Origin: an uncultured Niabella sp.
GTDB lineage: Bacteria; Bacteroidota; Bacteroidia; Chitinophagales; Chitinophagaceae
Direction of reading: 5' to 3'
DNA length: 64,000 nucleotides
Assembly: GCA_934486785.1 (NCBI GenBank)
Contig: CAKSQK010000006.1
Span: 62,001-126,000, forward strand
Each line of letters starts with the position of its first letter. The stretch's first letter is position 1. Shown piece by piece: positions 8,844-29,769 of the stretch. The notes under the pieces are model-generated. The model saw only the letters and a program-made list of their open reading frames with translations, was not told where the DNA came from and did not search any database. A program made the position numbers and the translations under genes.

Positions 8844-10811
8844 ATGATTCAATTTGACTTACCCAGGGAGCAGTCCTCCATACTTAAAGTGATTGGAGTG
8901 GGCGGCGGCGGCGGTAATGCCGTTAATCACATGTTTAACCAGAATATAGAAGGTGTAAATTTTATTATTTGTAATACTGATGCGCAGGCGCTGTCGAACA
9001 GCAAAATTGCCAACCGCATACAATTAGGTCCCCAACTCACGTCAGGTTTGGGTGCAGGCGCCAACCCTGAAATTGGCCGGCAGGCTACAGAAGAATCGCT
9101 TGAAGAGATCAGGCGCATTTTAGAAGTAAATACCAAAATGGTTTTCATTACTGCCGGCATGGGTGGTGGCACTGGTACGGGAGGTGCGCCTATCATTGCT
9201 AAAATTTGTCGGGATCTGGGCGTGCTTACTGTTGGTATTGTTACCATGCCTTTTGCATACGAAGGAAAGAAACGCCATTTGCAGGCAGAAGAGGGTATAA
9301 AGCAATTAAAGCAATACGTGGACACGCTGCTGGTTATAAGCAACGATAAGCTGCGCCACCAGTTTGGCAATCTTAAAATGCGGGAAGCATTTGAAAAAGC
9401 CGATAACGTGCTGGCAACCGCGGCCAAATGTATTACCGATGTAATCACTACCACGGGCCAGATCAACGTAGACTTTGCCGATGTGTGCACTGTAATGCGC
9501 AACGGCGGCGTGGCCATATTAGGCAACGCGGCAGCCAGCGGAGAAAATCGTGCGCAGCGCGCTATTGAAGAAGCTCTAAGCTCTCCATTGTTGAACGACA
9601 ATGACATACGTGGTGCTAAGTGGATTCTGATTAACATCAACTCTGCAGAAGGCGAGCACGAGTTCACAATGGATGAGGTTGAGATCATACAATCACACCT
9701 CTTAACCCAGGCCGGAGAAAATACTGATGTAATACTGGGTATGGGTTATGATAATACACTGGAAGATTCTATTGGCATCACACTAATTGCAACAGGTTTT
9801 GAAAACAAAGATCCATTTGTAAAACCTGTTCTCAAACGCGAAGAAGCCGAAGAAGGTAAAATAGTATTGATGCTTGGGCATGAAACCAACTTGCGCGCAG
9901 AACCTGTTATTGAAAAAATTGATGTTCAGGAAGAAGAACAATCTGCAGTTGCCGCAATCACTCCTGAAACCGAAATTAAATTTAAGCCCGACCCAATGGC
10001 ACCAAAATTAATTGAAGAACCATTGTTCTTTGATGCTCCAATGCCAACTGTTGAAGACATAGTTATCGAGCAGACAGTTGAAAACGACTATATCAATTAT
10101 GATCTGTCCTATGATTTGGAAGAAAAACCCGAAGTTGAAAATAAAGAAGAAAAGGAAGTTGAGCAGCAGCAGGTAGCAGAAGAAGAGATCATAGAACACG
10201 TGTTCTATTCGCCTGCCATCCCCTCTTCTGACAGGATTTTAAGAGTGCCGGATATCGAAGAAACAGAAGAAGTAAAAGAAACTCCGGCTGTATCTGCAGG
10301 TTCGTATCAATTATCTAAACCTTTAAATATTTATAGCGAAAGCCGCGAGGAAGAAAAAGTGTTTGAAAAAGAGATCATAGATTTTTCTGATATGGCCGAT
10401 GAGCCAAAAGAAGAAGAACAGCAAACATCTGAATTGCAAATGGGTATGTTTGAAAAGCCCGGGCCGGTTGAAATGAAAGAAGAAACAACAACGGTTTTTT
10501 ATACTTCTCACATGCAAACCGGTTCCGCAAAAAAAGAGGAACCGGAAGCAGATGAGCAGGAAATGCAAAAACGCAAACAGTTGGAACGCCTGCAAAAATT
10601 ACGCAACCTTTCATTTAACGTAAACGCCGGTGATCCTAACAGCGAGTTTGAAAACGTACCGGCTTACATCAGGCGCAATATGGAAATGTACAACAATTCT
10701 CACTCGCATATTGAGAGTTATTATAGCAAATATGAGGTTTCTTCGAACGATAAGAACCAGGGACAAATCAATACCATCAACACTTTTCTTGACGGTAAAA
10801 AACCAGATTGA
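8844..10811 (+). CDS. ftsZ: Cell division protein FtsZ with extended C-terminal linker
   Basis: Tubulin-like GTPase forming the Z ring. The GTP-binding signature GGGTGTGGAP is at residues 107-116 and the synergy loop NVDFADVCTVM near residue 208. The globular domain ends near residue 320. A roughly 280-residue acidic, Glu-rich linker follows, then the probable partner-binding peptide NVPAYIRRN at about 604-612 and the terminal sequence INTFLDGKKPD. At 655 residues it is much longer than the E. coli protein, as in many Bacteroidota. The last 13 codons, the stop and the downstream terminator recur at 29636-29769 with one synonymous change, marking this gene end as the left boundary of the accessory island. 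Confidence 0.97.
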   Translation: MIQFDLPREQSSILKVIGVGGGGGNAVNHMFNQNIEGVNFIICNTDAQALSNSKIANRIQLGPQLTSGLGAGANPEIGRQATEESLEEIRRILEVNTKMVFITAGMGGGTGTGGAPIIAKICRDLGVLTVGIVTMPFAYEGKKRHLQAEEGIKQLKQYVDTLLVISNDKLRHQFGNLKMREAFEKADNVLATAAKCITDVITTTGQINVDFADVCTVMRNGGVAILGNAAASGENRAQRAIEEALSSPLLNDNDIRGAKWILININSAEGEHEFTMDEVEIIQSHLLTQAGENTDVILGMGYDNTLEDSIGITLIATGFENKDPFVKPVLKREEAEEGKIVLMLGHETNLRAEPVIEKIDVQEEEQSAVAAITPETEIKFKPDPMAPKLIEEPLFFDAPMPTVEDIVIEQTVENDYINYDLSYDLEEKPEVENKEEKEVEQQQVAEEEIIEHVFYSPAIPSSDRILRVPDIEETEEVKETPAVSAGSYQLSKPLNIYSESREEEKVFEKEIIDFSDMADEPKEEEQQTSELQMGMFEKPGPVEMKEETTTVFYTSHMQTGSAKKEEPEADEQEMQKRKQLERLQKLRNLSFNVNAGDPNSEFENVPAYIRRNMEMYNNSHSHIESYYSKYEVSSNDKNQGQINTINTFLDGKKPD

Positions 10812-10903
10812 CCCCTATGGAAATTCTAAACCTCGTTCGGAGGATTTGGGTGTATAGTTTTATAGTTGTTACCCCTGCAATTTTGCAGGGGTTTTTTTGT
10901 TGG
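10771..10903 (+). repeat. Left copy of the ftsZ-tail direct repeat (island boundary)
   Basis: This 133-bp segment covers the last 13 codons of ftsZ, its TGA stop, the short 3' untranslated stretch and the rho-independent terminator. It recurs in the same orientation at 29636-29769. By eye there are three differences: a synonymous CTT/CTC leucine codon, one extra A in the hairpin loop of the right copy, and G/A just after the T-tract. Here it is joined to a full-length ftsZ. Flanking sequence outside the segment does not match between the copies. Confidence 0.93.
10871..10898 (+). terminator. Rho-independent terminator of the dcw/ftsZ operon
   Basis: A 10-bp perfect stem (ACCCCTGCAA pairing with TTGCAGGGGT, 10871-10880 and 10883-10892) with a minimal TT centre is followed by seven T residues ending at 10898. 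It lies 60 bp after the ftsZ stop and should end transcription of the division cluster. The same hairpin, with an 11-bp stem, is present in the right repeat copy. Confidence 0.88.
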
Positions 10904-11202
10904 GCTTATTGAAAAAATGCTTTTATCATACGGCCACCTACAACAAAAATGCCATTGCAAAGGCTGCAGGCACCCATGACAGATAATGAGAAAGCTTCTG
11001 CCACCTACGTTTGGAAAAGAAAACGACTTGGAGCTGGTGATTTTCTTGCTCTCTTTATGTAGAGAATAAGCATAATAATATTTATCCTTCTTCAATATAA
11101 ATTTTCGGTATTTGTCAGTTTTATCTTCAAGTGAATGATAATATAGATAAAATAGTTCAAATAATTGATAAAAATGTTAAAATATTAGCAATTTGAAGAT
11201 GA
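10904..11202. other. Intergenic left shoulder of the island, no gene called
   Basis: About 300 bp between the ftsZ terminator and the susC promoter, increasingly AT-rich toward susC. A minus-strand frame at 10826-11095 reads into the ftsZ terminator repeat and has no recognisable domain, so I do not call it. No integrase, transposase or terminal inverted repeat was seen. Confidence 0.5.
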
Positions 11203-11210: not shown

Positions 11211-11248
11211 GTGTAAGAATTTTTTAAAACCAAAAATCTATCAAATAC

Positions 11249-14200
11249 ATGAAACGGCGAATGATTAATTTTTCTGATCCCGATAGCTATCGGGAGGAAT
11301 GTATAAGCGAATCTCCCTGCCTTAGAGCAGACTGGCACAGGCCAAATATTATTAAAGCGCTTGCAGGCGAGTTAAAAAGCATACGGGTAAAATATCTGTT
11401 TCTACTTTTGGCCATTTTTTTCACAACCATTGTGTGTGCTCAACGACAACAGATATCAGGAACTATAACTGATAGTTTAGGTGCGCCTGTTGCATCGGCT
11501 AGTATTATTGAAAAAGGAACAACAAACGGCACAACATCCGGCGATGATGGTCGTTTTGTGCTTGTTGTTAACCCAAATGCAAGACTCATCATATCTTCCA
11601 TCGGGTATGCTACCGTAGAAATGCCGGCAACGGATAATATGCGCATTGTTTTAAACGCTTCGGCAATAGAGGTTGGCCGGGACGTGGTAGTTGTAGCTTA
11701 TGGTACGCAGGACAGAGCCACAATGACAAGCTCGCAAACTTCTATTTCCAGTTCGGAATTTAGAGGACAACCTGTTATCAGGCTTGATCAGGCCTTACAG
11801 GGAAGAGCGGCTGGCGTACAGGTTACTAACACTACGGGCGCACCGGGAGGCGATGTGAGAATACGCATCAGAGGCGCTAACTCCATAAACGGAGACAACG
11901 GGCCTTTGTATGTGATTGACGGCTTTGTTGGCGGCGACTTTAACGTCATCAATCCGGATGATGTTGTAGACATACAAATTTTGAAGGATGCTGCTGCCAC
12001 TGCCCCTTACGGAAGCAGAGGCTCAAATGGCGTGATCATCGTAACTACAAAAAAGGGAAGCAGGGGAAGAGCCAATTTGAGTTTAACTTCAAGATTGTCA
12101 TATTCTGAAGTAACCAAAACATACGACAAACTTAACGCAGCAGATTTTGCAGAAATTGTGAACGAGCGCGCAAGAGTATCAGGCAATAACGATGTTTTTA
12201 CGGCGCAGCAGATAAGCCAGTTTAGAAATACAGGAGGTACAGATTGGCAAAAAGAAATTTACCGGAAGGCGGTCGGCCAGCAATATGAGTTGGCCGTAAA
12301 CGGCGGCGGCGAAAATACCAATTATTACATTTCGGGCTCTTATCACAATCTTCCGGGGGTGATTATAAATTCATGGTACAAGTTTTACAATATTCGTTCA
12401 AATATCAATGCCACTTTATCAGATAAATTATCTACTTACATTAATTTTAATGGGTTTGCCAGAAATAATTATAATACATTTTTAAGATCCGGTACACAAA
12501 ATGCTGTTGTGCAGGCGCTTGCCTGGGCGCCTACAACGCCGGTGAGAGATGCTAATGGAAATTATACCAGGCAGGATCCGGTAGGGTCAGTCGGTTACAA
12601 TCCTTTGGCAGAAGCCACGGATAGAGAAGCGCTGGCAAACAATTACAGCGCAAACATTAGCGGAGGTATTATTTATAAGATTCTTCCTGATCTTACATTG
12701 AATGTGCAGTATGGTGTAAATTATTTAGGCGGGCAGTACAAAAATTATGGTTCTGAATATGTTTCAAATGAGCCTTATACGGGTAGAAGCATGGGTTCTG
12801 CTTTTAATTTACAAAATATCAATACTTTAAATTATAAAAAAATATTCAACGGAGTACACGGCCTTGATCTTACAGCAGTTGTTGAACTGCAAAAAGATAA
12901 GTCAGAGGGCTTTAATGTGGAAGCAAATAATTTGATTTATCCTGATTTTAAATGGAACAATTTCAGTTTGGTAACGCTGGTGGGTGCCGGAGCTTATGCC
13001 GGAGAAGCCTCTTTATTTTCAGTGTTCGGCAGAGCCAATTATGCTTTTGACCAAAAATATTTATTATCAGGCACCATCAGAAGAGACGCCTCATCACGGT
13101 TTAGAGGTACTAACAAATACAGCTATTTTCCTTCTGTTTCTTTAGGTTGGGTGCTGTCCAGAGAAAACTTCATTCAAAACATGAACATTTTTGATGAATT
13201 TAAATTACGAGGTTCATGGGGGCTTACAGGAAACCAGGCGATTAGTTCGTACAGCACTTTTGCCACATACAGCAGCACTGCCATGACGTATGACAACTCT
13301 TCTTTTGTTCCTGGTATTTTGATAGACCGGGCAGAAAATCCTGATTTAAAGTGGGAAACAACAGAGCAGATCAACCTGGGGCTGGACATGCGTTTCCTGA
13401 AAAACAGAATGTTTGTCAATATTGATTATTTCAATAAAAATACCAGAGACCTTTTATTCTGGGTAGGATTGCCCGCTTACGTTGGCGGTGGCGGTATAAT
13501 GAGAAACGTTGGCAATGTAGAAAACAAGGGCTGGGAATTGACGGTTGGGGGCACGCCTGTAAAAACGGGTAATTTTACATGGGTGACAGATTTCAACTAT
13601 TCAATAGTAAACAATAAAATCAAAAAACTTTCTACGCCCGATAATAGCGACTTAACCTGGGACTCTGATATTGGCTGGGGCGCTACTAACTTCCCTGAAT
13701 TTCTTTTAAGAGTGGGAGAGCCAATGGGCGCTATTTACGGTGTAAATTACTTAGGTACCTGGAAACCCGGGCAGGAGGCAGAGGCCGCTGCTTACGGCGA
13801 AAAACCCGGCGACTCAAGATATGAAGACATGAACAATGATAAAAAGATTGATGCTGCTGATTTCACTATCATCGGGTATGGCCTTCCAAAATCTACGCTG
13901 GGCTGGAACAACACCTTAAACTTTAAAGGCTTTGAAATGAATGTGCTGCTGCAGGGTGTTTTTGGATTTGATAAAATGAATTTGCTTAATGCTATGTCCA
14001 TGGCACATTTTGGAGATTTTCGCCAGCCAGTGCTGAATGATATTAAGAACAGGTATATTCCAGGTGTAAATGAAACATCTGACATTCCTGCCTTCAGCAG
14101 CACAAACAAAAATTTTGTGCAGTCATCCCGTTTTGTTTCTCCGGGCGATTTTCTGAGAATAAAAAATGTGAGCTTATCTTACACAGTGCCAAAAGCAAGC

Positions 14201-14386
14201 TTCTGGAACGTGGCTTCCATTCGCCTCTTCGCAAGCGTTACTAATGTATTTACATTCACTAAATACAATGGCATGGATCCGGAAACAGCCAACACCGGTG
14301 CCGGAAACGATGCGGCACAAAGCTTTGATTATGGCAGCTATCCCATTCCAAGAGTCTTTACTGGTGGCATCACCCTCAATTTTTAG
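11249..14386 (+). CDS. SusC/RagA-family TonB-dependent outer-membrane transporter
   Basis: Outer-membrane beta-barrel importing oligosaccharides with its SusD lid partner, energised by TonB. The order is a long N-terminal extension of about 46 residues, a hydrophobic signal segment (KYLFLLLAIFFTTIVCAQ), a carboxypeptidase-regulatory-like domain (ISGTITDSLGAPVASASI), the plug (ALQGRAAGVQVTNT, IRIRGANSINGDNGPLYVIDG) and a 22-strand-type barrel. It ends in GGITLNF with a terminal aromatic. No other in-frame start lies between the extension and the signal segment apart from an ATG at 11261. The extension contains an 18-bp perfect DNA palindrome. It is the first gene of the apiosidase island and lies 51 bp from susD. 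Confidence 0.95.
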   Translation: MKRRMINFSDPDSYREECISESPCLRADWHRPNIIKALAGELKSIRVKYLFLLLAIFFTTIVCAQRQQISGTITDSLGAPVASASIIEKGTTNGTTSGDDGRFVLVVNPNARLIISSIGYATVEMPATDNMRIVLNASAIEVGRDVVVVAYGTQDRATMTSSQTSISSSEFRGQPVIRLDQALQGRAAGVQVTNTTGAPGGDVRIRIRGANSINGDNGPLYVIDGFVGGDFNVINPDDVVDIQILKDAAATAPYGSRGSNGVIIVTTKKGSRGRANLSLTSRLSYSEVTKTYDKLNAADFAEIVNERARVSGNNDVFTAQQISQFRNTGGTDWQKEIYRKAVGQQYELAVNGGGENTNYYISGSYHNLPGVIINSWYKFYNIRSNINATLSDKLSTYINFNGFARNNYNTFLRSGTQNAVVQALAWAPTTPVRDANGNYTRQDPVGSVGYNPLAEATDREALANNYSANISGGIIYKILPDLTLNVQYGVNYLGGQYKNYGSEYVSNEPYTGRSMGSAFNLQNINTLNYKKIFNGVHGLDLTAVVELQKDKSEGFNVEANNLIYPDFKWNNFSLVTLVGAGAYAGEASLFSVFGRANYAFDQKYLLSGTIRRDASSRFRGTNKYSYFPSVSLGWVLSRENFIQNMNIFDEFKLRGSWGLTGNQAISSYSTFATYSSTAMTYDNSSFVPGILIDRAENPDLKWETTEQINLGLDMRFLKNRMFVNIDYFNKNTRDLLFWVGLPAYVGGGGIMRNVGNVENKGWELTVGGTPVKTGNFTWVTDFNYSIVNNKIKKLSTPDNSDLTWDSDIGWGATNFPEFLLRVGEPMGAIYGVNYLGTWKPGQEAEAAAYGEKPGDSRYEDMNNDKKIDAADFTIIGYGLPKSTLGWNNTLNFKGFEMNVLLQGVFGFDKMNLLNAMSMAHFGDFRQPVLNDIKNRYIPGVNETSDIPAFSSTNKNFVQSSRFVSPGDFLRIKNVSLSYTVPKASFWNVASIRLFASVTNVFTFTKYNGMDPETANTGAGNDAAQSFDYGSYPIPRVFTGGITLNF
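11278..11295. repeat. 18-bp perfect palindrome inside the susC 5' coding region
   Basis: TCCCGATAGCTATCGGGA is perfectly self-complementary. It lies 30 bp inside the reading frame, in the part encoding the unusual N-terminal extension of SusC, and 68 bp after the candidate -7 box. It may be an operator, a translational hairpin or a copy of a dispersed palindrome; I saw no second copy in the window. Confidence 0.6.
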
Positions 14387-14437
14387 TTTGTTACAACCCA
14401 AATCTTAATGGTTGAGATTATCAAAAAAAAAAATAAA

Positions 14438-15895
14438 ATGAAAAATATTAAATTAATTATGTTGATTTTTATTGCAGCTGGCGCAGTAGGGTGCAATAAA
14501 TTTTTAGAAGAAAAGCCACAAGGCATCCTTATAGGCGACGTGGCTATTTCAAACGTAAACGGGCTAAATGCCCAATTGGCCGGCGCTTATTCCACACTCA
14601 TAGGTAGTTGGGGTTCGGGCTTTGCCACTGCCGCTGCCATTGGAAGTTCTATGGGCGGCGACGATGTAACCACACATCCGGCATCCAACAAAGCTGATTT
14701 TCGCGAATTCGATCAGTTCAATGTAAATTCCTTCAATGGCAGATCTTCAGCAATCTGGAACGGATGTTATAAAAGCATTCAATCTGCCAACAACATCATC
14801 AACAATTACGCAAAAGCAACCGGCGACGAAAATGACATCATGCGCATTGTGGGAGAGGCCCATTTCATCCGTGCTTTTAGTTACTATTATCTTGTGCGCT
14901 GGTGGGGCAAAATTCCGCTGATAACTACGGCGGTTTATTCTCCTGATCTGTTAAACGTTCCAAAAAGCGAAATCACCGAAGTTTACAAGCTAATAGAAGA
15001 AGATCTTAAAAAAGCAGAAGAGCTTGTAGGCGATCAAAAACTGGCGCCCGGCAGAATAAATAAAGGGGTGGTGAAGGCATATTTGGCAGATATGTATCTT
15101 ACACAATCAGGATGGCCGCTTAAGGACAATTCTAAAGTAGCCCTGGCTGCGCAATATGCCAAAGACGTGATTGATAACAAAGCAAAATATGGTTTTGATC
15201 TTTTTCAGGGCGATTTTCTCAAGATCTTTGCCGGTGGAACTTCGGAAAATGTGTTTGCACTAATGACCGACGGTAACGCAACCAGCAACTTGTATTACGG
15301 CTGGTCAGGCATGCCCGGCGATGAGAACGGCTGGGATGATTATTGCTCGGAAATTAATTTCTTCAATAGTTTTCCCGAAGGCAACCGTAAAAACGGCACA
15401 TTTTTAACATCCGTAACCAAAAGTGACGGCACGGTTGTTCAATGGCAGAACTTTTCGATCAAGCATCCCTATTATAAAAAATTCAGAATACAAATCGGAA
15501 ATCCTAATACATATTATTCAAGTAATCCTATTATTTTTATGCGCTATGCAGAAGTGCTGCTGATATATGCCGAAGCCCAGGCAAGAAGCGGAGCGCCGAA
15601 CGCCGATGCTTATGCCGCTGTAAACGCTGTGCGTAACCGCGCCGGGCTTGGCGATCTTGCTACAGGAATGAACAGCGCCAATTTTGTAAATGCTGTGTTG
15701 CAGGAAAGAGCATGGGAGTTTGCCGCCGAGTGGCACAGGTGGTTTGACCTGGTAAGAACCGAAACAGTAAAGCAGGCTAATTCCAACAGGCACGCAAACG
15801 AAATTCCATTGATAGGAGATCCGGGAGATCAAACAAAGTGGTTCCTTCCCATACCGGCAAGCGAAGTAACATCAAATCCTTCTTTAGGAAAATAA
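14438..15895 (+). CDS. SusD/RagB-family outer-membrane glycan-binding lipoprotein
   Basis: Surface lipoprotein forming the lid over the SusC transporter and binding the incoming glycan. The chosen ATG at 14438 gives a lipoprotein signal ending in AAGAVGC; the longer frame from 14408 adds ten lysine-rich residues. SusD features include NKFLEEKPQG at the mature N-terminus, the TPR region with FIRAFSYYYLVRWWGKIPLITT, and the C-terminal NAVRNRAGLGD and LQERAWEFAAEWHRWFDLVRT blocks. Length of about 485 residues is typical. It directly follows susC, and a strong hairpin separates it from the glycoside hydrolase genes. Confidence 0.95.
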   Translation: MKNIKLIMLIFIAAGAVGCNKFLEEKPQGILIGDVAISNVNGLNAQLAGAYSTLIGSWGSGFATAAAIGSSMGGDDVTTHPASNKADFREFDQFNVNSFNGRSSAIWNGCYKSIQSANNIINNYAKATGDENDIMRIVGEAHFIRAFSYYYLVRWWGKIPLITTAVYSPDLLNVPKSEITEVYKLIEEDLKKAEELVGDQKLAPGRINKGVVKAYLADMYLTQSGWPLKDNSKVALAAQYAKDVIDNKAKYGFDLFQGDFLKIFAGGTSENVFALMTDGNATSNLYYGWSGMPGDENGWDDYCSEINFFNSFPEGNRKNGTFLTSVTKSDGTVVQWQNFSIKHPYYKKFRIQIGNPNTYYSSNPIIFMRYAEVLLIYAEAQARSGAPNADAYAAVNAVRNRAGLGDLATGMNSANFVNAVLQERAWEFAAEWHRWFDLVRTETVKQANSNRHANEIPLIGDPGDQTKWFLPIPASEVTSNPSLGK

Positions 15896-17327: not shown

Positions 17328-17340
17328 AGTAATAGTAGTC

Positions 17341-21379: not shown

Positions 21380-23074
21380 ATGAGCGATGTTTTTGAAATA
21401 AATAACGGCATTTTTAGCGCACTGTTTTTAAATGGCGACTTTAGAAAATTGAAAACAGGCGGCCAAGAATTTATTCAGCGCATTTATTTTGCTGTAAGAG
21501 ATGAACAATGGCGCAACGTTTCTTTTGCTTTAAAAAAGATCAGTGAACAAAGCAGCAATGAAGCCTTTTCCTGCACGCATGAAATGCTTTTCAGCGCCGG
21601 ATCAATAAAATTTAATGTAAATATTTTTTTTTCAATAGAAAAAAATAATATCACTATAGAAGCGAATGGAAAAGCACTGTGCGCTTTCAATAAAAACAGG
21701 ATCGGATTTTGCCTGCATCTGCCTGCCACATTAAAAGCAACAGATTGCATTGTAACGCATTTAGATCATACAACAACAGTGTCTTCTTTTCCGTTTTTCG
21801 TTTCGCCTCACCAACCTTTCAAAAACATTTCCGCAATTGAATGGGAAAAGAACGGCAAAAGAATAAAGATCGTTTTAGAAGGTGATGTTTTTGAAATGGA
21901 AGATCAGCGCAATTGGACAGACGCTTCTTATAAAATCTATTCCACTCCGTTGGAAATTCCTTTTCCGGCAGAAGTGAAAAAAGGAGAAAAATTTTACCAA
22001 AAAATATCCATAATGCTTTCAGGTGAAAAACAGTCCGATCCCATAAATAACAAATTAGAGACACTACCCTCCGAAACCGTTGCCTGCCCTGCGTTGGGTA
22101 TTGTTGAACCTGGCGTGATCGCTGGCGGGGAAAATATTCTTTCAGAAAAAAGCGATTTGCCTTTTTCACACTACCGGATAGATTTCCATTTATACGATAC
22201 AAACTGGAAAACATCGTCACTGCCCGGCATTTTAAGGGCTGCAGCTTTGCATTTACCTGTCTATGCCGTTGTATATTTTAGCGGCAATTTTTTATTGCAG
22301 GCTAAAGAGTTTATTGCATTCATCCATTCTTTCAAAAGCGTTTTCATTCATTCCGTTTGTCTTTTGCCAGCAGAAAATTTTGTGCTTCGCGATGATGTGT
22401 TGCAAGCATTGGTCTCTGTAATGCGGCAATCATTTTCTAAAGCGGCTGTAGGCGGCGGTACCGATGCAAATTTTGCTCAGTTGAACCGGAGCCGCCCGGA
22501 TCCTTCATTGTTAGATTTTATTTGTTATTCCGTTCAGCCGCAGGAACATGCTGCTGATGCGTTGTCTATCATAGAGAATATTCAGGGCCAATTGCCCACC
22601 GTGCAAACAGCAAAAACGTTTTCTGCAAATAAAGAAGTGCACATTTCAGCGCTTTCTTTTTTTAAAAGGTTTAATGCAAACGTCACTTCAGTTTGGAAAG
22701 ATAAAATTGAGACATACGAACACAAAGGCTCTTGTTTTGAAGCGGCATGGTTTGTAGCATCGTTGCATCAATTAATAGTTGCCGGAGCGGCTTGTATTAA
22801 TTGTGTTTATCCTGTAAAAAAAGAGCTTCCGCTTATAAAAATGGTCAGTTATATGGCAAAAAATCCTCCTGAACGTTTTTATACGTGCGGTTCATTTCTT
22901 CCTGAAAAATATGCAGCGCTTTCCTGGCGGTCGAAAAACAAAAGACATTCTGTTTTTGCAAATCTCACGGAAGAAAAAATAGCCATTGCGCATCCTTTCG
23001 CTGAAATTGTTTTAATGCCATTTGAAATTCATTACACCAGTTCAATATTAAAAAATCAATTTCATCATCTTTAA
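21380..23074 (+). CDS. apnL: Probable D-apionate lactonase (ApnL-like)
   Basis: A 564-residue protein without signal peptide. The N-terminal half is a predicted beta-sandwich with RIYFAVRDEQW, NRIGFCLHLP and EGDVFEMEDQRNWTDASYKIYSTPLEIPFP. The middle looks like a TIM-type domain (DFHLYDTNWKTSS onward, GGGTDANFAQLNRSRP), and the C-terminus is a small beta domain. The EMEDQRNWTDAS block and three-part layout match my memory of ApnL, which hydrolyses D-apionolactone to D-apionate in the oxidative apiose pathway. The call depends on recall plus context: ApsD-like and ApnO-like genes follow. The alternative is an uncharacterised glycoside-hydrolase-like protein. Confidence 0.65.
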   Translation: MSDVFEINNGIFSALFLNGDFRKLKTGGQEFIQRIYFAVRDEQWRNVSFALKKISEQSSNEAFSCTHEMLFSAGSIKFNVNIFFSIEKNNITIEANGKALCAFNKNRIGFCLHLPATLKATDCIVTHLDHTTTVSSFPFFVSPHQPFKNISAIEWEKNGKRIKIVLEGDVFEMEDQRNWTDASYKIYSTPLEIPFPAEVKKGEKFYQKISIMLSGEKQSDPINNKLETLPSETVACPALGIVEPGVIAGGENILSEKSDLPFSHYRIDFHLYDTNWKTSSLPGILRAAALHLPVYAVVYFSGNFLLQAKEFIAFIHSFKSVFIHSVCLLPAENFVLRDDVLQALVSVMRQSFSKAAVGGGTDANFAQLNRSRPDPSLLDFICYSVQPQEHAADALSIIENIQGQLPTVQTAKTFSANKEVHISALSFFKRFNANVTSVWKDKIETYEHKGSCFEAAWFVASLHQLIVAGAACINCVYPVKKELPLIKMVSYMAKNPPERFYTCGSFLPEKYAALSWRSKNKRHSVFANLTEEKIAIAHPFAEIVLMPFEIHYTSSILKNQFHHL

Positions 23075-23085: not shown

Positions 23086-24087
23086 ATGTTTGAAGTACAA
23101 AATTATACGCTGGCAATTATGCTTTGCTTTTTAGCTATGATCTGCTGGGGCTCGTGGCAAAACACAAGGAATCTTCTGCCATCTTCGTGGCGGTTTGAGC
23201 TTTTTTACTGGGATTTTGTTATTGGCATTGTTATATTATCCGTTATCGCGGCGTTTACACTTGGCAGCCTCACGCCAGAAAACCGAACGTTTATGCAGGA
23301 CATTGCCCAGGCTGGCATCAATTATATTTTGCTGGCAATGCTGGGCGGGTTTATCTGGAATTTAGGAACGTTGCTGTTAACCGCTGGTATTGCCACAACC
23401 GGCATGGCCGTTGCGTTTCCCATTGGCGGTGGCATTGGCTGGATTTTGGGAATTGTGGTGAATTACATCGGCACGCCGGAAGGCGATCCGCTATGGCTGT
23501 TTACTGGATGCGCCGTAATTGTGGTGGCTATCATTTGCAGCATGATGGCTTATAAGAAAAAAGCAGCTTCTCAGCAAAAGAGCATCAAAGGCGTTTTGTA
23601 TTCGTTTGCCGCCGGCATTTTTATCGCCTTTTTTTATCGTTTTGTGATGATGTCCATCAGCGATGATATTTCTCCAGAATATACCGGCGGGCAGCTTACG
23701 CCGTACACGTCTGTGGTTTTCTTTGCGTTGGGCGCTTTGGTTAGCACGCTTATCTTCAATCCTTTTTTCATGCGTTTTCCCGTTGAAGGATCGCCTGTTA
23801 AAATAAACGATTATTTCAAAGGAACATCCAAAATACACCTTCTGGGAATGATTGGCGGCGCCATCTGGTGTATGGGACAGGTTTTTAGTGTAATGTCTGC
23901 AAACGCCGCTTCTCCCGCTATTGCTTACGGCCTCAGCAATGGCGCGCCGATAGTGGCCGCCGTCTGGGGTATTTTTGTATGGAAAGAATTTAAAAATGCG
24001 CCCAAAGGAACAAATACTTTACTTGCGCTGATGTTTGTTTTTTACATTATTGGTCTGGCATTGATCATTTACTCGCGTTATGCTTAA
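23086..24087 (+). CDS. GRP-family / DMT-superfamily sugar transporter
   Basis: Inner-membrane permease with about ten predicted transmembrane helices over 333 residues. The N-terminal AMICWGSWQNTRNL and the GFIWNLGTLLLTAGIATTGMAVAFPIGGGIGWILG block are characteristic of glucose/ribose porter and RhaT-like carriers. The second half repeats the pattern (LGMIGGAIWCMGQVFSVMSANAASPAIAYGLSNGAPIVAAVWGIFVWKEF), reflecting the duplicated five-helix fold of the superfamily. It lies between the lactonase-like and dehydrogenase genes with small gaps, so it probably carries the monosaccharide released in the periplasm, here inferred to be D-apiose. Confidence 0.88.
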   Translation: MFEVQNYTLAIMLCFLAMICWGSWQNTRNLLPSSWRFELFYWDFVIGIVILSVIAAFTLGSLTPENRTFMQDIAQAGINYILLAMLGGFIWNLGTLLLTAGIATTGMAVAFPIGGGIGWILGIVVNYIGTPEGDPLWLFTGCAVIVVAIICSMMAYKKKAASQQKSIKGVLYSFAAGIFIAFFYRFVMMSISDDISPEYTGGQLTPYTSVVFFALGALVSTLIFNPFFMRFPVEGSPVKINDYFKGTSKIHLLGMIGGAIWCMGQVFSVMSANAASPAIAYGLSNGAPIVAAVWGIFVWKEFKNAPKGTNTLLALMFVFYIIGLALIIYSRYA

Positions 24088-24119
24088 TTTTTTTTAATGA
24101 TAATTCATTTAAAATAATA

Positions 24120-25163
24120 ATGATGGAAGAATTAAAATTTGCTGTTTTAGGTACCGGCTTTTGGTCGCAATTTCAGGTAGGCGCCTGGAGCGAAATTCCG
24201 GGCGCGCGGCTGGTTGCTTTGTATAACAGAACAAAATCTAAGGCCGAAGATATGGCCGCGCGCTTCAATGTGCCTGCGGTTTACGATGATGCAGCAGAAA
24301 TGTTTAAAAAAGAGGAATTGGATTTTGTTGATATTATAACAGATGTGGACACGCATTTAAAATTTGTGGAAATGGCTGCGGATGCAGGTATAAAGCACAT
24401 TATTTGCCAAAAGCCTATGGCTCCCGATTGGGAAACCGCAAAAGCGATGATCAAAAAATGCAATCAGGCGGGCGCGCATCTTTACATTCATGAAAACTAC
24501 CGCTGGCAGGCGCCTGTAAGAAAATTTAAGGAAATATTGGATTCAGGCGTGATCGGCGCTCCTTTTAAAGCGCGCGTATCTTTCCTGTCGGGCTTTCCTG
24601 TTTTTGATAATCAGCCTTTTCTTAAAGAGCTGGATCATTTTATTCTTACCGATATGGGTTCGCATGTGTTTGATATTTGCCGTTATCTTTTTGGCGAAGC
24701 AAAAAAATTGTGGTGCCAGGCAAAATCAGTCAATCCGGGAATAAAAGGAGAAGATGTAGCCGTTGTGTTAATGGAAATGCAGAGCGGCATGCCTTTATAT
24801 ACGGAAATGTCTTATGCTTCTGTTGTTGAGCATGATATGTTCTCAACGGTCAACGTGCTTGTGGAAGGAGATAAGGGAAGCATGGCATTAGGGCCGGGCG
24901 CCGCTTTTGAAATACGCACCACAACACGCGACGGAACAAAGGTGGAAAAGGTAAAATTTCCTGCTTACAATTGGGCAGATCCCGATTATATTGTGAACCA
25001 TGAAAGCGGCATACACATTAACCGCAACATTCTCAACGCCATTCGCGGCAAAGAAAAAGCTGAAAACACGGGTGATGATAATCTGGAAACAGTAAGACTG
25101 GTTTGGGCTTCCTACGCATCTGCCAAAAGCGGAAAACTGCTGGAGTTGAAGGATTTTAATTAA
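24120..25163 (+). CDS. apsD: Gfo/Idh/MocA-family oxidoreductase, probable D-apiose dehydrogenase
   Basis: NAD(P)-dependent sugar dehydrogenase of 347 residues. An N-terminal Rossmann fold (FAVLGTGFWSQFQVGAWSEIPGARLVALYNRT) is followed by the ICQKPMA motif with the conserved EKP-type lysine, here preceded by Gln rather than Glu. HENYRWQAPVRKFKEIL and DMGSHVFDICRYLFGE lie in the substrate domain. The family is certain. D-apiose as substrate, giving the lactone, is inferred because lactonase- and oxidoisomerase-like genes and two apiosidases share the locus. Start ATG at 24120; a second ATG at 24123 is equally possible. A 19-bp hairpin follows the stop. Confidence 0.75.
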   Translation: MMEELKFAVLGTGFWSQFQVGAWSEIPGARLVALYNRTKSKAEDMAARFNVPAVYDDAAEMFKKEELDFVDIITDVDTHLKFVEMAADAGIKHIICQKPMAPDWETAKAMIKKCNQAGAHLYIHENYRWQAPVRKFKEILDSGVIGAPFKARVSFLSGFPVFDNQPFLKELDHFILTDMGSHVFDICRYLFGEAKKLWCQAKSVNPGIKGEDVAVVLMEMQSGMPLYTEMSYASVVEHDMFSTVNVLVEGDKGSMALGPGAAFEIRTTTRDGTKVEKVKFPAYNWADPDYIVNHESGIHINRNILNAIRGKEKAENTGDDNLETVRLVWASYASAKSGKLLELKDFN

Positions 25164-25178
25164 ATAAGGTATAGATTA

Positions 25179-25224: not shown

Positions 25225-25229
25225 CGTCT

Positions 25230-26063
25230 TTATTTTTTCACAATGTCTTTTACCTGCTCTCTAATATCGTCCATTTCAAATATCTTTTTCCAGTCATCTT
25301 TAAAAATAATGGGTTTAGCTCTTTTGCTGATCTTGTAAGCCGCATCAGAAAAAGTGCCGCTGGTTTCTTTGAATAAAACAGCTATCTGGATGCGCAAATG
25401 CCCTAAAACAAAATCGCGCGCGGCGGCTTCGGGCACGCCCAGTTCTACAATTCTATCAAAACCTTCTTTTACAATTTCCATGGCTGTTTGGGCTAAAGTT
25501 TCCACCATGGCAGGTTCCAGCATAGACATTTGTTCTAAGGTAATGCGATGCGTGTCTTTAATGGGGCCGTACATGTCCTGCGCCATTTTTTCGCCCAATT
25601 TATAATGTTCTTCTGTGCCGTGCATCAGAGCCACAACAATGGATTGTTTAGCGCTGATGCCGCCGTAAAAATCGCGGAACGCTTCTTCGGTAGGCTCCCA
25701 GTTAAAAATGCCTGGGTGGCATGGATGGGCAATTACGTAGCCGATGTCATCGCGGTGATGAATAATGCCATCAAGCGGTGCTGCAGGATCCAGCGTCATC
25801 ACCAGTGCGCCGCTTTTCATTTGAGGAATAATTTCGCGTGAAATTTCGCCGATAGAAACATCGGGAACGCCCAGAATAACCACGTCGGCATCGGGAATGG
25901 CTTGTGCCTGGTCGCTTACTACAACATTTCTTTCTTTTAAGTTTTGAATTCCCTGTTCGCTTATTTCAAGATAATCCAGCATGTACTGCCGGCATTTTAA
26001 AAAATTATCTGTAAGGCGGCAGCCCATTTTTCCTCCGGCGCCTACTAATGCAATCTTTGTCAT
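25230..26063 (-). CDS. apnO: Phosphogluconate-dehydrogenase-like oxidoreductase, probable D-apionate oxidoisomerase (ApnO-like)
   Basis: A 277-residue NAD-dependent enzyme with Rossmann signature KIALVGAGGKMGCRLTDN at residues 3-20 and VVILGVPDVSIGEIS. A C-terminal all-alpha domain contains AHPCHPGIFNWE and DTHRITLEQMSMLEPAMVETLAQTAMEIVKEG. This layout matches proteins annotated as phosphogluconate dehydrogenase C-terminal domain proteins, the family that includes D-apionate oxidoisomerase (D-apionate to 3-oxo-isoapionate). Adjacent genes fit that pathway. It is the second gene of a minus-strand pair with the TIM-barrel gene, whose stop overlaps this start region by 4 bp. Confidence 0.72.
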   Translation of the reverse strand: MTKIALVGAGGKMGCRLTDNFLKCRQYMLDYLEISEQGIQNLKERNVVVSDQAQAIPDADVVILGVPDVSIGEISREIIPQMKSGALVMTLDPAAPLDGIIHHRDDIGYVIAHPCHPGIFNWEPTEEAFRDFYGGISAKQSIVVALMHGTEEHYKLGEKMAQDMYGPIKDTHRITLEQMSMLEPAMVETLAQTAMEIVKEGFDRIVELGVPEAAARDFVLGHLRIQIAVLFKETSGTFSDAAYKISKRAKPIIFKDDWKKIFEMDDIREQVKDIVKK

Positions 26064-26869
26064 TGTATATATTTTTTAAGGTAATGAATACTTTTTTGCA
26101 CCCAGCGCTTTTCTTTTTTGATCGTTTGCCCCATATCTTCCTCGCGGTTCATCCAGGTTTCAAGCGTAGCCGTTTTGCATTTTTGCTGCCGGCTGCATTG
26201 TTGCAAAAGCCACGGAATATCCAGCATTCCTTCGCCTGCGGGCGTACCGGAAACAGTAAATCCCATTTTATGATCTACTCTTTTTATAGTAAAATCTTTT
26301 ATGTGCAAATTCACGGTGTAAGGCAGCAGCACGGGAAGAATTTCATAAATGCCTTCGCCTGCGCCCAAAGAGTTGGCGGTGTCTAAACAAATGCCCACAT
26401 ATTTTTCGTTGGTTTGACGAATGATATGCGCTAAATCTTTTGCTTTGAAGCGGTCATGATTTTCTATGGCAAGGCAAATGTTTTTTTGCTCTAATAGCGG
26501 CAGAAGCAATTTTATCACTGCAATTATTTCTTCAATATCCGGATGATAATCAACATCATCCATCACCACGCGCAAAAAAGGCGAAGAAAAGAATGCAGCA
26601 ATTTCTATGTATTGTTCAATATTTACCTTCGTGAGGCGGCGCGTGCCTGCCTGAATTTTTATGTCGCAGGCGGCAGCAAGCATTTTCAGATCGTGCATTT
26701 CTTCATCTTTCAGCAAATGCAAAGGCAAATTGTCTCCAAACTGTAGGTGCTTAATTTGATTTCGGCAGGTAAAAGCGATCAATTCTTTATACGTCAGGGG
26801 CGCATCCTGCAGCGAGCCTTCTATACCAATGTTCCAGGGAAAAGAATATGTGCTTAATCCTAAATTCAT
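26060..26869 (-). CDS. Sugar-phosphate isomerase/epimerase-fold TIM barrel, probable 3-oxo-isoapionate decarboxylase (OiaC-like)
   Basis: A metal-dependent TIM barrel of the AP-endonuclease-2/xylose-isomerase-like superfamily, about 269 residues from the ATG at 26869. An upstream in-frame ATG at 26896 would add nine residues. Likely metal ligands are Glu in LAIENHDRF, Asp in GICLDTANSLGAGEG, His in NLHIKDFTI and Glu in ATLETWMN. The STYSFPW start and KHLQFGDNLPLH segment fit this family. In the oxidative apiose route a protein of this fold decarboxylates 3-oxo-isoapionate to L-erythrulose. An isomerase role is the main alternative. It is transcribed divergently from the kinase gene. Confidence 0.68.
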   Translation of the reverse strand: MNLGLSTYSFPWNIGIEGSLQDAPLTYKELIAFTCRNQIKHLQFGDNLPLHLLKDEEMHDLKMLAAACDIKIQAGTRRLTKVNIEQYIEIAAFFSSPFLRVVMDDVDYHPDIEEIIAVIKLLLPLLEQKNICLAIENHDRFKAKDLAHIIRQTNEKYVGICLDTANSLGAGEGIYEILPVLLPYTVNLHIKDFTIKRVDHKMGFTVSGTPAGEGMLDIPWLLQQCSRQQKCKTATLETWMNREEDMGQTIKKEKRWVQKSIHYLKKYIQ

Positions 26870-27030
26870 GACCATTACCGCGTAAACGAAGTTCATTCAA
26901 AAATTTTTGTCGTTTGTTAACATTTTTATCAAATTATAGAACAATATTATCCTGTTATTCTTTTTTAATTAAAAAAACAGCTATATTAGAGGAACTAAAA
27001 AAACATCTTCATTATTCAATAAAACGATGC

Positions 27031-28518
27031 ATGCTGCTCCTTGGAATAGATATTGGCACCTCATCAGTAAAAGCAACTGTGATGGATGCAGCCTCTCAAG
27101 TAACGCTCTCTTCAGCTTCTTTTCCTGGCAGCGAAGCGGCAATTATAAGTTTGCAGACTGGCTGGGCTGAGCAGGATCCTGTAACATGGTGGACGTTTGC
27201 ACAACAGGCCATTTTGCAATGTCATTCACATAAAAAATATAACCCCAAAGAAATTGCAGCAATAGGTATTTCTTACCAGATGCATGGACTGGTTTTAACG
27301 GATGAGTCGGGTAAAGCTCTTAGAAATTCCATTATTTGGTGCGACAGCAGAGCGGTGGACATTGGACGAAAAGCATTTGCTGAAATTGGCGAAGAGAAAT
27401 GTTTGCGTTCTTTGCTAAATTCTCCCGGCAATTTTACTGCAAGCAAACTGGCATGGGTAAAGGAAAACGAACCAGAAATTTATAAGAAAATTCATAGAAT
27501 AATGCTGCCCGGTGACTACATTTCCATGAAATTTACAGGAAGCACTACCACAACCATTTCAGCTTTGTCGGAAGGCATTTTCTGGGACTTTCACACAAAT
27601 GCAATTTCCGAAGATGTGATGCAATATTTTGATTTTGATGCTGCGCACTTCCCTGAAATACGTCCTGTATTTTCCGTGCACGGAAAGCTATTAAAACCAG
27701 TTGCGCACGAACTTGGTTTAACACCACAAATCCCGGTGAGCTACAAGGCGGGCGACCAACCCAACAATGCGCTTGCGCTGAACGTGATGCAGCCCGGCGA
27801 AGTGGCTGCCACAGCCGGAACATCAGGCGTGATTTACGGCGTTTCGGATCAGTTGATTTTCGACAAAAAATCGCGCATCAATAATTTTGCGCACGTTAAT
27901 TATTGCAACAAAAATAAAAAAACAGGCGTTTTGCTTTGTTTAAACGGCACAGGTATTTTTTATAAATGGATAAAATCCATCATCGGTAAAGAAAAATCGT
28001 ATGAAGAAATCAATCGTATGGCTGCCGAAGTAGGCTCGGGCGCCAACGAGCTTTTTGCGCTGCCTTTCGGAAACGGAGCAGAAAGAATTTTAAACGATCG
28101 CTTCACCGGCGCACAATTTTTCGGCATTGATTTTAACGTGCACACTTCCTCTCATCTTCTGCGCGCGGCAATTGAAGGCATTGCTTTTTCTTTCAGATTC
28201 GGGCTTGATATGATGCGCGAAAACGGTATCAATCCAAAGATCATCAGGGCCGCACGGGCAAACATGTTTTTGAGTGATGTTTTTGCACAAGCATTTGCCA
28301 CCATTAATAATGTTGCGGTGGAATTTTACGAAGGCGACGGCAGTTATGGCGCGGCAATCGGCGCCGGCCTGGGGGCCGGTATTTACATAAATAGCGAAGA
28401 AGCTGCGAAAAACAGAAAGCCCGTAGGAGTTATTGAGCCGCAAAACGACGCAATGCTGAATGAAAAATATGAAAAATGGAAACAGGCGCTGGCAATGGCG
28501 CTTGAACTTGCAATGTAA
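27031..28518 (+). CDS. FGGY-family carbohydrate kinase (xylulokinase-like)
   Basis: ATP-dependent ketose kinase, about 495 residues from the ATG at 27031. The longer frame from 26914 adds 39 residues before the FGGY start LLLGIDIGTSSVKATVMD. Family blocks include GISYQMHGLVLTDESG, IIWCDSRAVD, SKLAWVKENEPEIYKKIHRIMLPGDYISMKFTG and the C-terminal GDGSYGAAIGAGLGAGIY. It most resembles xylulokinases. In this locus its likely job is phosphorylating the pathway ketose (L-erythrulose, or D-apulose if an isomerase route operates). It is divergent from the apnO/TIM-barrel pair across about 160 bp that probably hold both promoters. Confidence 0.88.
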   Translation: MLLLGIDIGTSSVKATVMDAASQVTLSSASFPGSEAAIISLQTGWAEQDPVTWWTFAQQAILQCHSHKKYNPKEIAAIGISYQMHGLVLTDESGKALRNSIIWCDSRAVDIGRKAFAEIGEEKCLRSLLNSPGNFTASKLAWVKENEPEIYKKIHRIMLPGDYISMKFTGSTTTTISALSEGIFWDFHTNAISEDVMQYFDFDAAHFPEIRPVFSVHGKLLKPVAHELGLTPQIPVSYKAGDQPNNALALNVMQPGEVAATAGTSGVIYGVSDQLIFDKKSRINNFAHVNYCNKNKKTGVLLCLNGTGIFYKWIKSIIGKEKSYEEINRMAAEVGSGANELFALPFGNGAERILNDRFTGAQFFGIDFNVHTSSHLLRAAIEGIAFSFRFGLDMMRENGINPKIIRAARANMFLSDVFAQAFATINNVAVEFYEGDGSYGAAIGAGLGAGIYINSEEAAKNRKPVGVIEPQNDAMLNEKYEKWKQALAMALELAM

Positions 28519-28543
28519 TTTCATAGAATAAAATCACTTGATT

Positions 28544-29437
28544 ATGACTATCCCGAAATACAGGTTGATTAACCCGCAAACCAACAGGTGCTTTGTTTTT
28601 AAGTGGGAACCGTTTGGGTTGAAAACCCTTTGGCATTATCATCCTGAGTTAGAAATGATTTTCTTTATCAAAGGTAAAACCAGCGCTGTGATCGGCAATG
28701 GATTTCAGGAGTTTGACGAAGGTGATCTGGTGCTGCTGGGAAAAGATTTTCCGCATGTTTTGCAGGAGCATATTACTTTTAAAAAAGAATTTCCCGATAT
28801 AGAACCTTTCGGGCTTATCATACAATTTACCGAAGAATTTTTGGGAATAGATTTTATTGAAAAAGCCGAACTGGAACCCATAAAAAAGCTTTTTTCTGAG
28901 GCGAGAAGAGGCATAAGGTTCGGCAAAAACATTACCGAAAAAGTGCGGCCGCAACTGCTGAATATGTATTTGTTGAACGATACCCGCAAATTGCTTTCGC
29001 TTATTGATATTCTTGCCACGCTGGGCGAAAGTAATGAATTTACTTATTTTTTAACTTCCAGCGAGTTTGATAATTATTGTCCGTTTGACGAAGACAGAAT
29101 GCAAAAAATCAACCAATACGTTTATGATCATTTTAAAGAAGAAATCACGCTGGAAAAAATTGCTTCGGTTTCTAACATGACTATTACTTCTTTTTGCAGG
29201 TATTTCAGGTCCAGAACTTTAAAAACCTTCACGCGTTTTTTAAATGAAGTAAGAATTGCTTATGCATGCAAATTGCTTAACGATGATAAATACTCCGTTA
29301 TGGATGTGTGTTTTCAATGCGGCTTCAACAGCTTGTCTTACTTCAACCGCCAATTTAAACTAATTATGAAAATGTCGCCGAGGCATTATAAAACCTGGAA
29401 GAAAAAAGCGCTGGAAAGCGAATTGGAAAACGCGTAA
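28544..29437 (+). CDS. AraC-family transcriptional regulator with cupin-like sensor domain
   Basis: A 297-residue regulator. The N-terminal cupin-like domain (HYHPELEMIFFIKGKTSAVIGNG, DLVLLGKDFPHVLQ) would sense a sugar ligand. The C-terminal pair of helix-turn-helix motifs spans about residues 195-290, with EITLEKIASVSNMTITSFCRYFRSRT and VMDVCFQCGFNSLSYFNRQFKLIMKMSPRHYK. It starts 25 bp after the kinase gene and is the last gene of the island, so it is the natural candidate to control the locus. Start ATG at 28544 is chosen over a TTG two codons upstream. Confidence 0.92.
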   Translation: MTIPKYRLINPQTNRCFVFKWEPFGLKTLWHYHPELEMIFFIKGKTSAVIGNGFQEFDEGDLVLLGKDFPHVLQEHITFKKEFPDIEPFGLIIQFTEEFLGIDFIEKAELEPIKKLFSEARRGIRFGKNITEKVRPQLLNMYLLNDTRKLLSLIDILATLGESNEFTYFLTSSEFDNYCPFDEDRMQKINQYVYDHFKEEITLEKIASVSNMTITSFCRYFRSRTLKTFTRFLNEVRIAYACKLLNDDKYSVMDVCFQCGFNSLSYFNRQFKLIMKMSPRHYKTWKKKALESELENA

Positions 29438-29635
29438 AAATATTTTTTGCACAGTGTAATATGTATTTACAGTTGAACAACGGTAAACAGGAGCAGGTAT
29501 GAATTATTCATTTTAAAAACTTACCGTGAAAACCCTGATATGCTACTTGCTTTAGCTTGTCTTTCTTAAAATCAACCAATATAGCCTATCACCGTCACAG
29601 AAGTATTGCAGGTTTTTTGGTATGCTCATTTCAAT
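29438..29635. other. Intergenic right shoulder of the island, no gene seen
   Basis: About 200 AT-rich bases between the AraC gene and the right ftsZ-tail repeat. I see no reading frame of interest, no recombinase fragment and no inverted repeat matching the left shoulder. Confidence 0.5.
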
Positions 29636-29769
29636 ATACCATCAACACTTTTCTCGACGGTAAAAAACCAGATTGACCCCTATGGAAATTCTAAACCTCG
29701 TTCGGAGGATTTGGGTGTATAGTTTTATAGTTGTTACCCCTGCAAATTTTGCAGGGGTTTTTTTATTGG
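29636..29769 (+). repeat. Right copy of the ftsZ-tail direct repeat (orphan ftsZ 3' end plus terminator)
   Basis: This 134-bp segment repeats 10771-10903 in the same orientation. It encodes the ftsZ C-terminal residues NTINTFLDGKKPD and the stop, without any ftsZ body upstream, then the same 3' untranslated stretch and terminator. The only coding difference is a synonymous leucine codon. It is followed by the promoter of the next chromosomal gene, so it probably represents the displaced original end of ftsZ. See the findings for how this marks island insertion. Confidence 0.93.
29736..29764 (+). terminator. Rho-independent terminator in the right repeat copy
   Basis: An 11-bp perfect stem (ACCCCTGCAAA with TTTGCAGGGGT) around a single T, followed by a T-tract. 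It is the duplicate of the ftsZ terminator and now shields the downstream gene from readthrough out of the island. Confidence 0.85.

What the first reader, a model, noticed from the sequence alone, without database searches (positions are those of the whole stretch)
10771..29769. An 18.9-kb carbohydrate island inserted at the 3' end of ftsZ, bounded by a direct repeat of the ftsZ tail and terminator
The last 13 codons, stop and terminator of ftsZ occur twice in the same orientation, once joined to the whole gene and once as an orphan just before the next chromosomal gene. Flanks differ outside the 133/134 bp, and everything between is accessory sugar metabolism. This is the pattern left when an element carrying a gene's 3' end recombines into that gene and restores it, as integrative elements do at tRNA genes. 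Targeting the essential ftsZ tail with its terminator would be unusual. No integrase or transposase is present, so the element may be mobilised in trans, be a relic, or have entered by homologous recombination with a circular donor.
Basis: partly seen in the sequence, partly recalled or inferred. Interest (0 to 1): 0.9.

Follow-up and report, generated by a model that had tools for sequence, protein, structure and literature searches.

The report
Apiose gene island beside ftsZ
A block of plant-sugar (apiose) digestion genes has been spliced in beside an essential cell-division gene, leaving a second copy of that gene's end, most likely as a one-time recombination accident rather than the work of a dedicated mobile element.

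Summary
A 133/134-bp direct repeat (12 ftsZ codons, stop, 3'UTR, terminator) flanks an 18.7-kb apiose-utilisation island, and the closest relative found (L016) has the empty site. The proposed mechanism, an element targeting the ftsZ tail, is not supported: no integrase in the 12 main island ORFs; of 394 family genomes, 276 show one exact tail match and none two; phage, plasmid and viral searches for the tail were empty. The left end is a decayed apiosidase fragment. A near-identical FtsZ (3/655 differences) and a more diverged SPT-like protein (10/419) come from contigs of equal length, presumably one contig. This reverses the usual divergence (Fisher p=6e-6) and suggests strain recombination here. 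I favour a one-off homologous/illegitimate insertion.

A by-product may matter more. In Chitinophagaceae the ftsZ 3'UTR carries UUUUUAGUUGUU, complementary to AACAACUAAAAA near the ftsA start. In 80 loci (1.38 Mb) the 12-mer occurs 52 times there, its complement 53 times after ftsZ, and either once elsewhere. It resembles an OppZ-type autoregulatory 3'UTR, and the island carries a spare copy. In the window itself pairing is weaker and energy tests are unimpressive.

The parts
8844..10811 (+). ftsZ (655 aa), complete, ending in the left repeat copy
   Evidence: Pfam Tubulin/FtsZ_C
10771..10903 (+). left repeat copy: 12 ftsZ codons, stop, 3'UTR, terminator
10857..10870 (+). 3'UTR motif GTTTTATAGTTGTT, complementary (with G-U pairs or a bulge) to the ftsA upstream region
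7370..7393 (+). ftsA upstream region containing AATGACTATAAAA and AATAACTTAAAAC, putative pairing partner of the ftsZ 3'UTR
10944..11042 (+). decayed 3' fragment of a GH140-type apiosidase gene at the island's left end
   Evidence: local alignment to 18588-18690, score 81 against a maximum of 29 (300 shuffles) and 32.5 (270 window pieces)
11249..14386 (+). SusC-like TonB-dependent receptor (ORF start probably too far 5')
   Evidence: Pfam, translation
14408..15895 (+). SusD-like protein
   Evidence: Pfam
15972..17327 (+). GH140-type apiosidase 1
   Evidence: Pfam Apiosidase E 9.3e-102
17284..18723 (+). GH140-type apiosidase 2
   Evidence: Pfam Apiosidase E 1.4e-111
18781..21369 (+). GH2-family glycosidase
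   Evidence: Pfam
21380..23074 (+). ApnL-like D-apionate lactonase
   Evidence: NCBIfam NF049900 192 bits, below the 750-bit cut-off; some homologues are named D-apionolactonase
23086..24087 (+). RhaT/ureide-permease-like transporter
   Evidence: Pfam, NCBIfam
24120..25163 (+). Gfo/Idh/MocA dehydrogenase (candidate apiose dehydrogenase, by context)
   Evidence: Pfam
25230..26063 (-). PF16896 dehydrogenase (candidate ApnO, recalled)
   Evidence: Pfam
26060..26896 (-). AP_endonuc_2/xylose-isomerase-like protein (candidate OiaD, recalled)
   Evidence: Pfam
26914..28518 (+). FGGY carbohydrate kinase
   Evidence: Pfam, NCBIfam
28538..29437 (+). AraC-family regulator
   Evidence: Pfam
29636..29769 (+). 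right repeat copy: orphan ftsZ tail, 3'UTR, terminator
29859..31118 (+). serine-palmitoyltransferase/BioF-like gene, next to ftsZ in L016

Best explanation
The island is a horizontally acquired fragment of an apiose polysaccharide-utilisation locus. A single, non-site-specific recombination event between DNAs of the same or a very close species put it beside ftsZ. Most likely route (inferred): incoming DNA carrying ftsZ, its terminator and the island just after it recombined by homology upstream, while its far end joined illegitimately inside the recipient's own ftsZ at codon 643. The recipient's leftover ftsZ end then stands as the orphan copy before the SPT-like gene. Shown: the repeat, the empty site in L016, no recombinase in the ORFs scanned, the truncated apiosidase at the left end, no recurrence in the relatives searched, and the FtsZ/SPT divergence contrast. 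Inferred: direction, donor, and the two-step order.
For: Empty site in L016; window 4-10901 and 29636-31109 align in order to one stretch there. The copies differ at only 3 places, so the second tail comes from the same or a sister strain. L016 matches the left copy at the 2 differences it can polarise. The orphan starts at an arbitrary base inside codon 643, and the island starts soon after the terminator with a broken apiosidase fragment. No recombinase domain in the 12 main island ORFs. One tail per genome in 276 of 276 genomes with an exact match, 394 searched. FtsZ P0122 (3/655 differences from the window) and SPT P0244 (10/419) both have a longest contig of 103,685 bp; to the sister species the window differs at 114 and 20 positions; Fisher p 5.9e-6, as expected if ftsZ and SPT have different recent histories.
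Against: No conspecific contig could be read: that P0122 and P0244 share a contig is inferred from equal contig length, and its empty site is inferred too. The mosaic may lie in the other genome. A single crossover with a circle gives the same local structure. Gene conversion between the copies could hide an older event. The donor locus was not found: the nearest ApnL homologue other than the window's own is 63% identical. Base composition shows no foreign signal.
Confidence: 0.55

Rival explanations
1. Campbell-type integration: a circular molecule carrying the island and a 134-bp ftsZ tail (for instance from imprecise excision in a conspecific) integrated by one RecA crossover in the tail, regenerating ftsZ and leaving the second copy.
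For: Gives exactly this duplicated structure; copies about 98.5% identical; no recombinase needed.
Against: Does not predict the FtsZ/SPT divergence contrast. Needs a circle that already holds a conspecific ftsZ tail. No phage, plasmid or IMG/VR match to the tail.
Confidence: 0.22
2. Relic or in-trans-mobilised integrative element whose attachment site is the ftsZ 3' end, as integrative elements use tRNA 3' ends.
For: att-like repeat that restores the gene; insertion at a terminator; empty site.
Against: No integrase or mobility domain in the 12 main island ORFs; 0 of 276 family genomes with two tails, 0 of 15 in the genus; a coding-gene fragment at one end; the tail is conspecific although the island's ApnL is rare and distant in the family.
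Confidence: 0.1
3. Target duplication: an island fragment captured at a staggered break or by template switching in ftsZ's tail, copying 134 bp.
For: Arbitrary left boundary, near-identical copies, right copy derived at the 2 polarisable sites.
Against: A 134-bp duplication is long for such events (own knowledge); does not explain the FtsZ/SPT contrast.
Confidence: 0.08
4. Assembly artefact: chimaeric join at the repeat.
For: The repeat is of the order of assembler k-mers; no reads were available.
Against: Both island-tail junctions lie outside the shared repeat and the copies carry three distinguishing differences. The window's ApnL and SPT proteins are each listed on 3 contigs, longest 343,434 bp; these may be re-assemblies of the same data.
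Confidence: 0.05

Closest known systems
Integrative elements that integrate into gene 3' ends and restore them (tRNA, tmRNA and some protein genes; recalled)
   Same: Direct repeat of the gene's 3' end; intact target gene; accessory cargo; empty site in a relative
   Different: No integrase found, no recurrence at the site in the genomes searched, one end is a broken cargo-type gene, repeat of strain-level identity
Homology-facilitated illegitimate recombination (PMC3240628; only the start of the abstract seen, in a search listing)
   Same: Homology at one end and an illegitimate joint at the other inserts foreign DNA without a mobile element
   Different: Here inferred from anatomy only; no transfer observed
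Bacteroidota polysaccharide-utilisation loci with SusC/SusD (recalled)
   Same: SusC, SusD, glycosidases, transporter, catabolic enzymes, AraC regulator
   Different: Read here as specific to apiose/apionate; acquired beside ftsZ
OppZ/CarZ-type autoregulatory 3'UTR-derived sRNAs (PMC9438474; passages seen)
   Same: The operon's terminal 3'UTR with its terminator is complementary to an upstream region of its own gene cluster, just before ftsA
   Different: Chitinophagaceae ftsA-ftsZ; no RNA evidence; weaker in the window's clade
DicF of a defective E. coli prophage (PMC9438474; passages seen)
   Same: An accessory region carrying an RNA directed at division genes
   Different: Here the RNA would be a copy of the host's own ftsZ 3'UTR and would target ftsA; trans action untested

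Membership tests
Site-specific integrative element at a gene 3' end | Flanking repeat that reconstitutes the target gene | tested here: met
Site-specific integrative element at a gene 3' end | Integrase or other recombinase in the element | tested here: not met
   No recombinase family in the 12 main island ORFs. Antisense ORFs overlapping them and ORFs under 120 aa were not scanned. 26 further ORFs at 29859-63911 also gave none; ORFs at 1-8787 were not scanned
Site-specific integrative element at a gene 3' end | Recurrent use of the same site by elements in related genomes | tested here: not met
   0 of 276 with a match (394 searched; 118 had no exact match and are uninformative); 0 of 15 with a match (17 searched)
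Site-specific integrative element at a gene 3' end | Excision to a circle | not testable with these tools
   no reads held
Polysaccharide-utilisation locus | Adjacent SusC and SusD with glycosidases and a regulator | tested here: met
D-apiose/D-apionate catabolic locus | Apiosidase plus apionate-pathway enzymes | tested here: inconclusive
   Two apiosidase hits are clear; the ApnL-like hit is below its cut-off; ApnO and OiaD roles are recalled from domain families only
Autoregulatory 3'UTR-derived sRNA (OppZ type) | Conserved complementarity between the terminal 3'UTR and an upstream region of its own operon | tested here: met
   54 of 67 loci with at least 10 nt exact complementarity against 3.3% of shuffles, three of them (L007, L047, L057) at another site; specificity 52/53/1. 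Met for the family, weakly for the window: 9 nt exact, 14 with G-U. That ftsA and ftsZ share one transcript is assumed
Autoregulatory 3'UTR-derived sRNA (OppZ type) | A processed small RNA that represses its operon | not testable with these tools
   needs RNA-seq and reporters

The most novel reading that the evidence does not exclude
The repeat is a second gene for a regulatory RNA. In Chitinophagaceae the ftsZ 3'UTR base-pairs with the region just before ftsA, so the ftsA-ftsZ operon would be throttled by its own 3' end. The island ends in a spare copy, downstream of the AraC regulator gene, so transcription of that gene running through the orphan would release the same RNA and couple apiose use to cell division.
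Probability: 0.08. Interest if true: 0.85.

Novelty: new member of a known kind. Interest (0 to 1): 0.45.

Why it matters
For the island: a tidy direct repeat at an essential gene's 3' end need not mean a dedicated mobile element; recombination between strains can leave the same signature, and the two can be told apart by testing recurrence and flank mosaicism. For the repeat's content: a family-wide complementarity between the ftsZ 3'UTR and the ftsA upstream region would be a testable control of the FtsA:FtsZ balance. Two literature searches gave no report of it (no paper; 11 papers held at least 4 of 5 terms, 10 listed, judged by title and abstract start only), nor did two searches show integration at ftsZ (no paper). 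Only open-licence PMC papers were searched.

Tried and rejected
Own-genome search and file: no genome is held. Rfam: nothing in the window at gathering score; six sub-threshold hits (E 0.035-0.76) to sRNAs of other bacteria on the repeat, taken as chance. tRNA integration: no tRNA in the window. Tail in phages, plasmids and, as exact patterns, IMG/VR: empty; ApnL in IMG/VR: none. Plasmid ApnL homologues (236 records) are all under 60% identity and mostly Rhizobium and Sinorhizobium, so no donor there. PADLOC on three ORFs without a Pfam hit: none. Base composition: no contrast.

RNA pairing, results against it: whole-length duplex energies set only 37 of 67 loci apart from shuffles (at most 3 of 60 as good), and the window is not among them (15 of 60). 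For the window a narrower test gave 6 of 1000 shuffled UTRs as good, but two of 17 other 5' regions of the window (14408 and 41139) pair with the UTR better than ftsA's does. Swapping partners between loci changes the mean energy little (own -22.8, swapped -21.2 kcal/mol). Permuting partners shows only modest flank covariation (92 of 2000 permutations as good). Of the 13 of 67 loci below 10 nt, six are the window, L016 and L001-L005 taken without L003's twin: in detail window 9, L016 8, L001 7, L002 8, L003 7, L004 8, L005 8, that is seven loci of the window's own group. Loci dropped: one search kept 67 of 81 (80 loci plus the window), with L077 removed by hand because its ftsA start was miscalled; one search kept 48 of those 67, chosen for having both 6-nt cores. 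Outside my family samples 0 of 18 class genomes reach 10 nt (longest 9), nor do G031 and G047, which do appear in my family samples.
Full report
What was checked. The repeat is real: 10771-10903 and 29636-29769, same strand, 18,865 bp apart. With one 1-nt gap the copies differ at T10790/C29655 and G10899/A29765 and by one extra A in the right terminator loop. The left copy completes ftsZ; the right copy is preceded by unrelated sequence and followed by an SPT/BioF-like gene.

Empty site. A scan of genome contigs with FtsZ kept the best 80 of 283 loci. Only one of the 80, L016 (MAG Sphingobacteriales bacterium 41-5, FtsZ 77%, the highest identity), shows the SPT-like gene in the sequence held: it begins 312 bp after the ftsZ stop with a single tail and terminator between. 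Window 4-10901 and 29636-31109 align in order to one stretch of L016, with small gaps; the island does not align. The alignment stops after SPT. L016 agrees with the left copy at the two differences it can polarise (the T and the missing A), so the orphan is the changed copy there.

Recurrence. In the genus of L016, 15 of 17 genomes match the 135-bp query, each once. In 394 family genomes, a degenerate pattern for the FtsZ tail is found in 276 and not in 118 (uninformative); no row of the table shows two matches, and the reversed control pattern shows none (read by eye). In 94 ftsZ loci (five genomes counted twice; flanks up to 10 kb but often shorter, about 1.5 kb in 15) there is no second tail; four loci gave short repeats of 26-37 nt that I set aside. 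The tail has no match in phages or plasmids and none as an exact pattern in IMG/VR.

Cargo. SusC, SusD, two apiosidases, a GH2 enzyme, an ApnL-like lactonase (192 bits to NF049900, below its 750-bit cut-off), a RhaT-like transporter, a Gfo/Idh dehydrogenase, a PF16896 protein, an AP_endonuc_2 protein, an FGGY kinase and an AraC regulator. I read this as an apiose-to-apionate catabolic locus; the ApnO and OiaD assignments are recalled, not tested. No recombinase or transposase domain appears in these 12 ORFs, nor in the further ORFs scanned at 29859-63911. Overlapping antisense ORFs, ORFs under 120 aa, some downstream ORFs and those at 1-8787 were not scanned. ApnL relatives are rare in the family: 2 of 394 genomes, at 32-34% identity. 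In the large protein set (7,997 candidates scored) the nearest other ApnL is 63% identical.

The left edge is a broken gene. Positions 10944-11042 align to the 3' end of apiosidase 2 (18588-18690) with score 81; 300 shuffles reach 29 at most and 270 window pieces 32.5. The reading frame is lost. So the island begins, 40 nt after the repeat, in a decayed fragment of a cargo-type gene. That fits a fragment of a larger locus and not the end of a defined element.

Two histories at one junction. Among proteins close to the window, FtsZ P0122 (3 of 655 residues differ) and SPT P0244 (10 of 419 differ) both have a longest contig of exactly 103,685 bp, so I take them to share a contig. Against the sister species (both on contigs of 101,268 bp; P0123, P0247) the window differs at 114 and 20 positions. 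FtsZ normally changes faster than SPT (against L016: 137 of 645 and 30 of 419), yet here it is far closer (Fisher p 5.9e-6). One of the two genomes has recombined between ftsZ and SPT, where the island lies. The window's own ApnL and SPT are each on 3 contigs with the same longest length, 343,434 bp, and no ApnL variant other than the window's own is above 63%. The 103,685-bp contig therefore probably lacks the island, but I could not read it.

Mechanism. A homologous exchange upstream plus an illegitimate joint inside the recipient's ftsZ explains the arbitrary left boundary, the strain-level identity of the copies, the broken cargo gene, the lack of a recombinase and the contrast between flanks. 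A single crossover with a circle explains the repeat as well but not the contrast. An ftsZ-targeting element is less supported than either.

What the repeat contains. In 82 of 87 loci (Chitinophagaceae by most record titles) with at least 200 nt downstream, the ftsZ 3'UTR holds UUUAGUUGU or a near variant, by eye usually next to the terminator. It is complementary to a site about 17-25 nt before the ftsA start in most loci. Of 67 loci with both regions, 54 have an exact complementary run of at least 10 nt and 49 at least 11; doubly shuffled sequences do so in 3.3% and 1.2%. Three of the 54 (L007, L047, L057) have it at another site. In the 80 loci (1.38 Mb) the 12-mer AACAACTAAAAA stands 52 times within -90 to +40 of the ftsA start (50 loci), its complement 53 times within 250 nt after ftsZ (53 loci), and the two occur once elsewhere; about 0.16 is expected in all by simple base counting. 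The loci are related, so these are not independent events. Three loci with different sequences on both sides keep complementarity (L064 12 nt, L072 12 nt, L065 10 nt), and their own pairs rank 1-8 of 67 against swapped partners.

Against the pairing: the loci aligned were chosen for an intact core, so the core gives no covariation, and flank covariation is modest (92 of 2000). Energy tests are weak for the window, and its own group pairs less (window 9 nt exact, 14 with G-U; L016 8). 18 class genomes outside my family samples and two within them lack a 10-nt run. The topology is that of OppZ, where a 3'UTR RNA acts on an intergenic region of its own operon (PMC9438474, passages seen). The orphan copy has an identical 66-nt UTR segment and a terminator. 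Two consensus scans show no promoter on its strand before it, so it could probably be made only by read-through; that remains speculation.

Verdict. A real and, by the few differences between copies, fairly recent island insertion with an ordinary recombinational origin; the integrative-element reading is disfavoured. The conserved complementarity between the ftsZ 3'UTR and the ftsA upstream region is the more promising lead.

Noticed in passing
window 7370-7393 and 10857-10870; L001-L080: ftsZ 3'UTR motif complementary to the region just upstream of ftsA across Chitinophagaceae; candidate autoregulatory 3'UTR RNA.
   Followed up: partly
window about 11249-11323; L132-L135: A roughly 60-80-nt dispersed repeat with the palindrome CCCGATAGC(T/A)ATCGGG, found four times in the L016 genome at 79-84% identity and once here, at the 5' end of the SusC ORF; the true SusC start is probably downstream.
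   Followed up: partly
L001-L080, just after the ftsZ terminator: The gene after ftsZ varies widely among relatives (67 loci compared), and near-identical UTRs diverge right after the terminator (for example L007/L008, L017/L018).
   Followed up: partly
window 15972-18723: Two apiosidase genes in tandem with overlapping ORFs and a 154-nt stretch near their 5' ends that is 90% identical.
   Followed up: no
window 31189-37161: GldN, GldM, GldL and an FGE-sulfatase-domain gene (GldK-like, recalled) follow the SPT-like gene; the alignment with L016 stops before them.
   Followed up: no
L131 3741-8893 (G173): A differently arranged apiose cluster: the PF16896 protein is 81% identical, the apiosidase, Gfo/Idh, AP_endonuc_2 and AraC proteins 40-60%.
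   Followed up: partly
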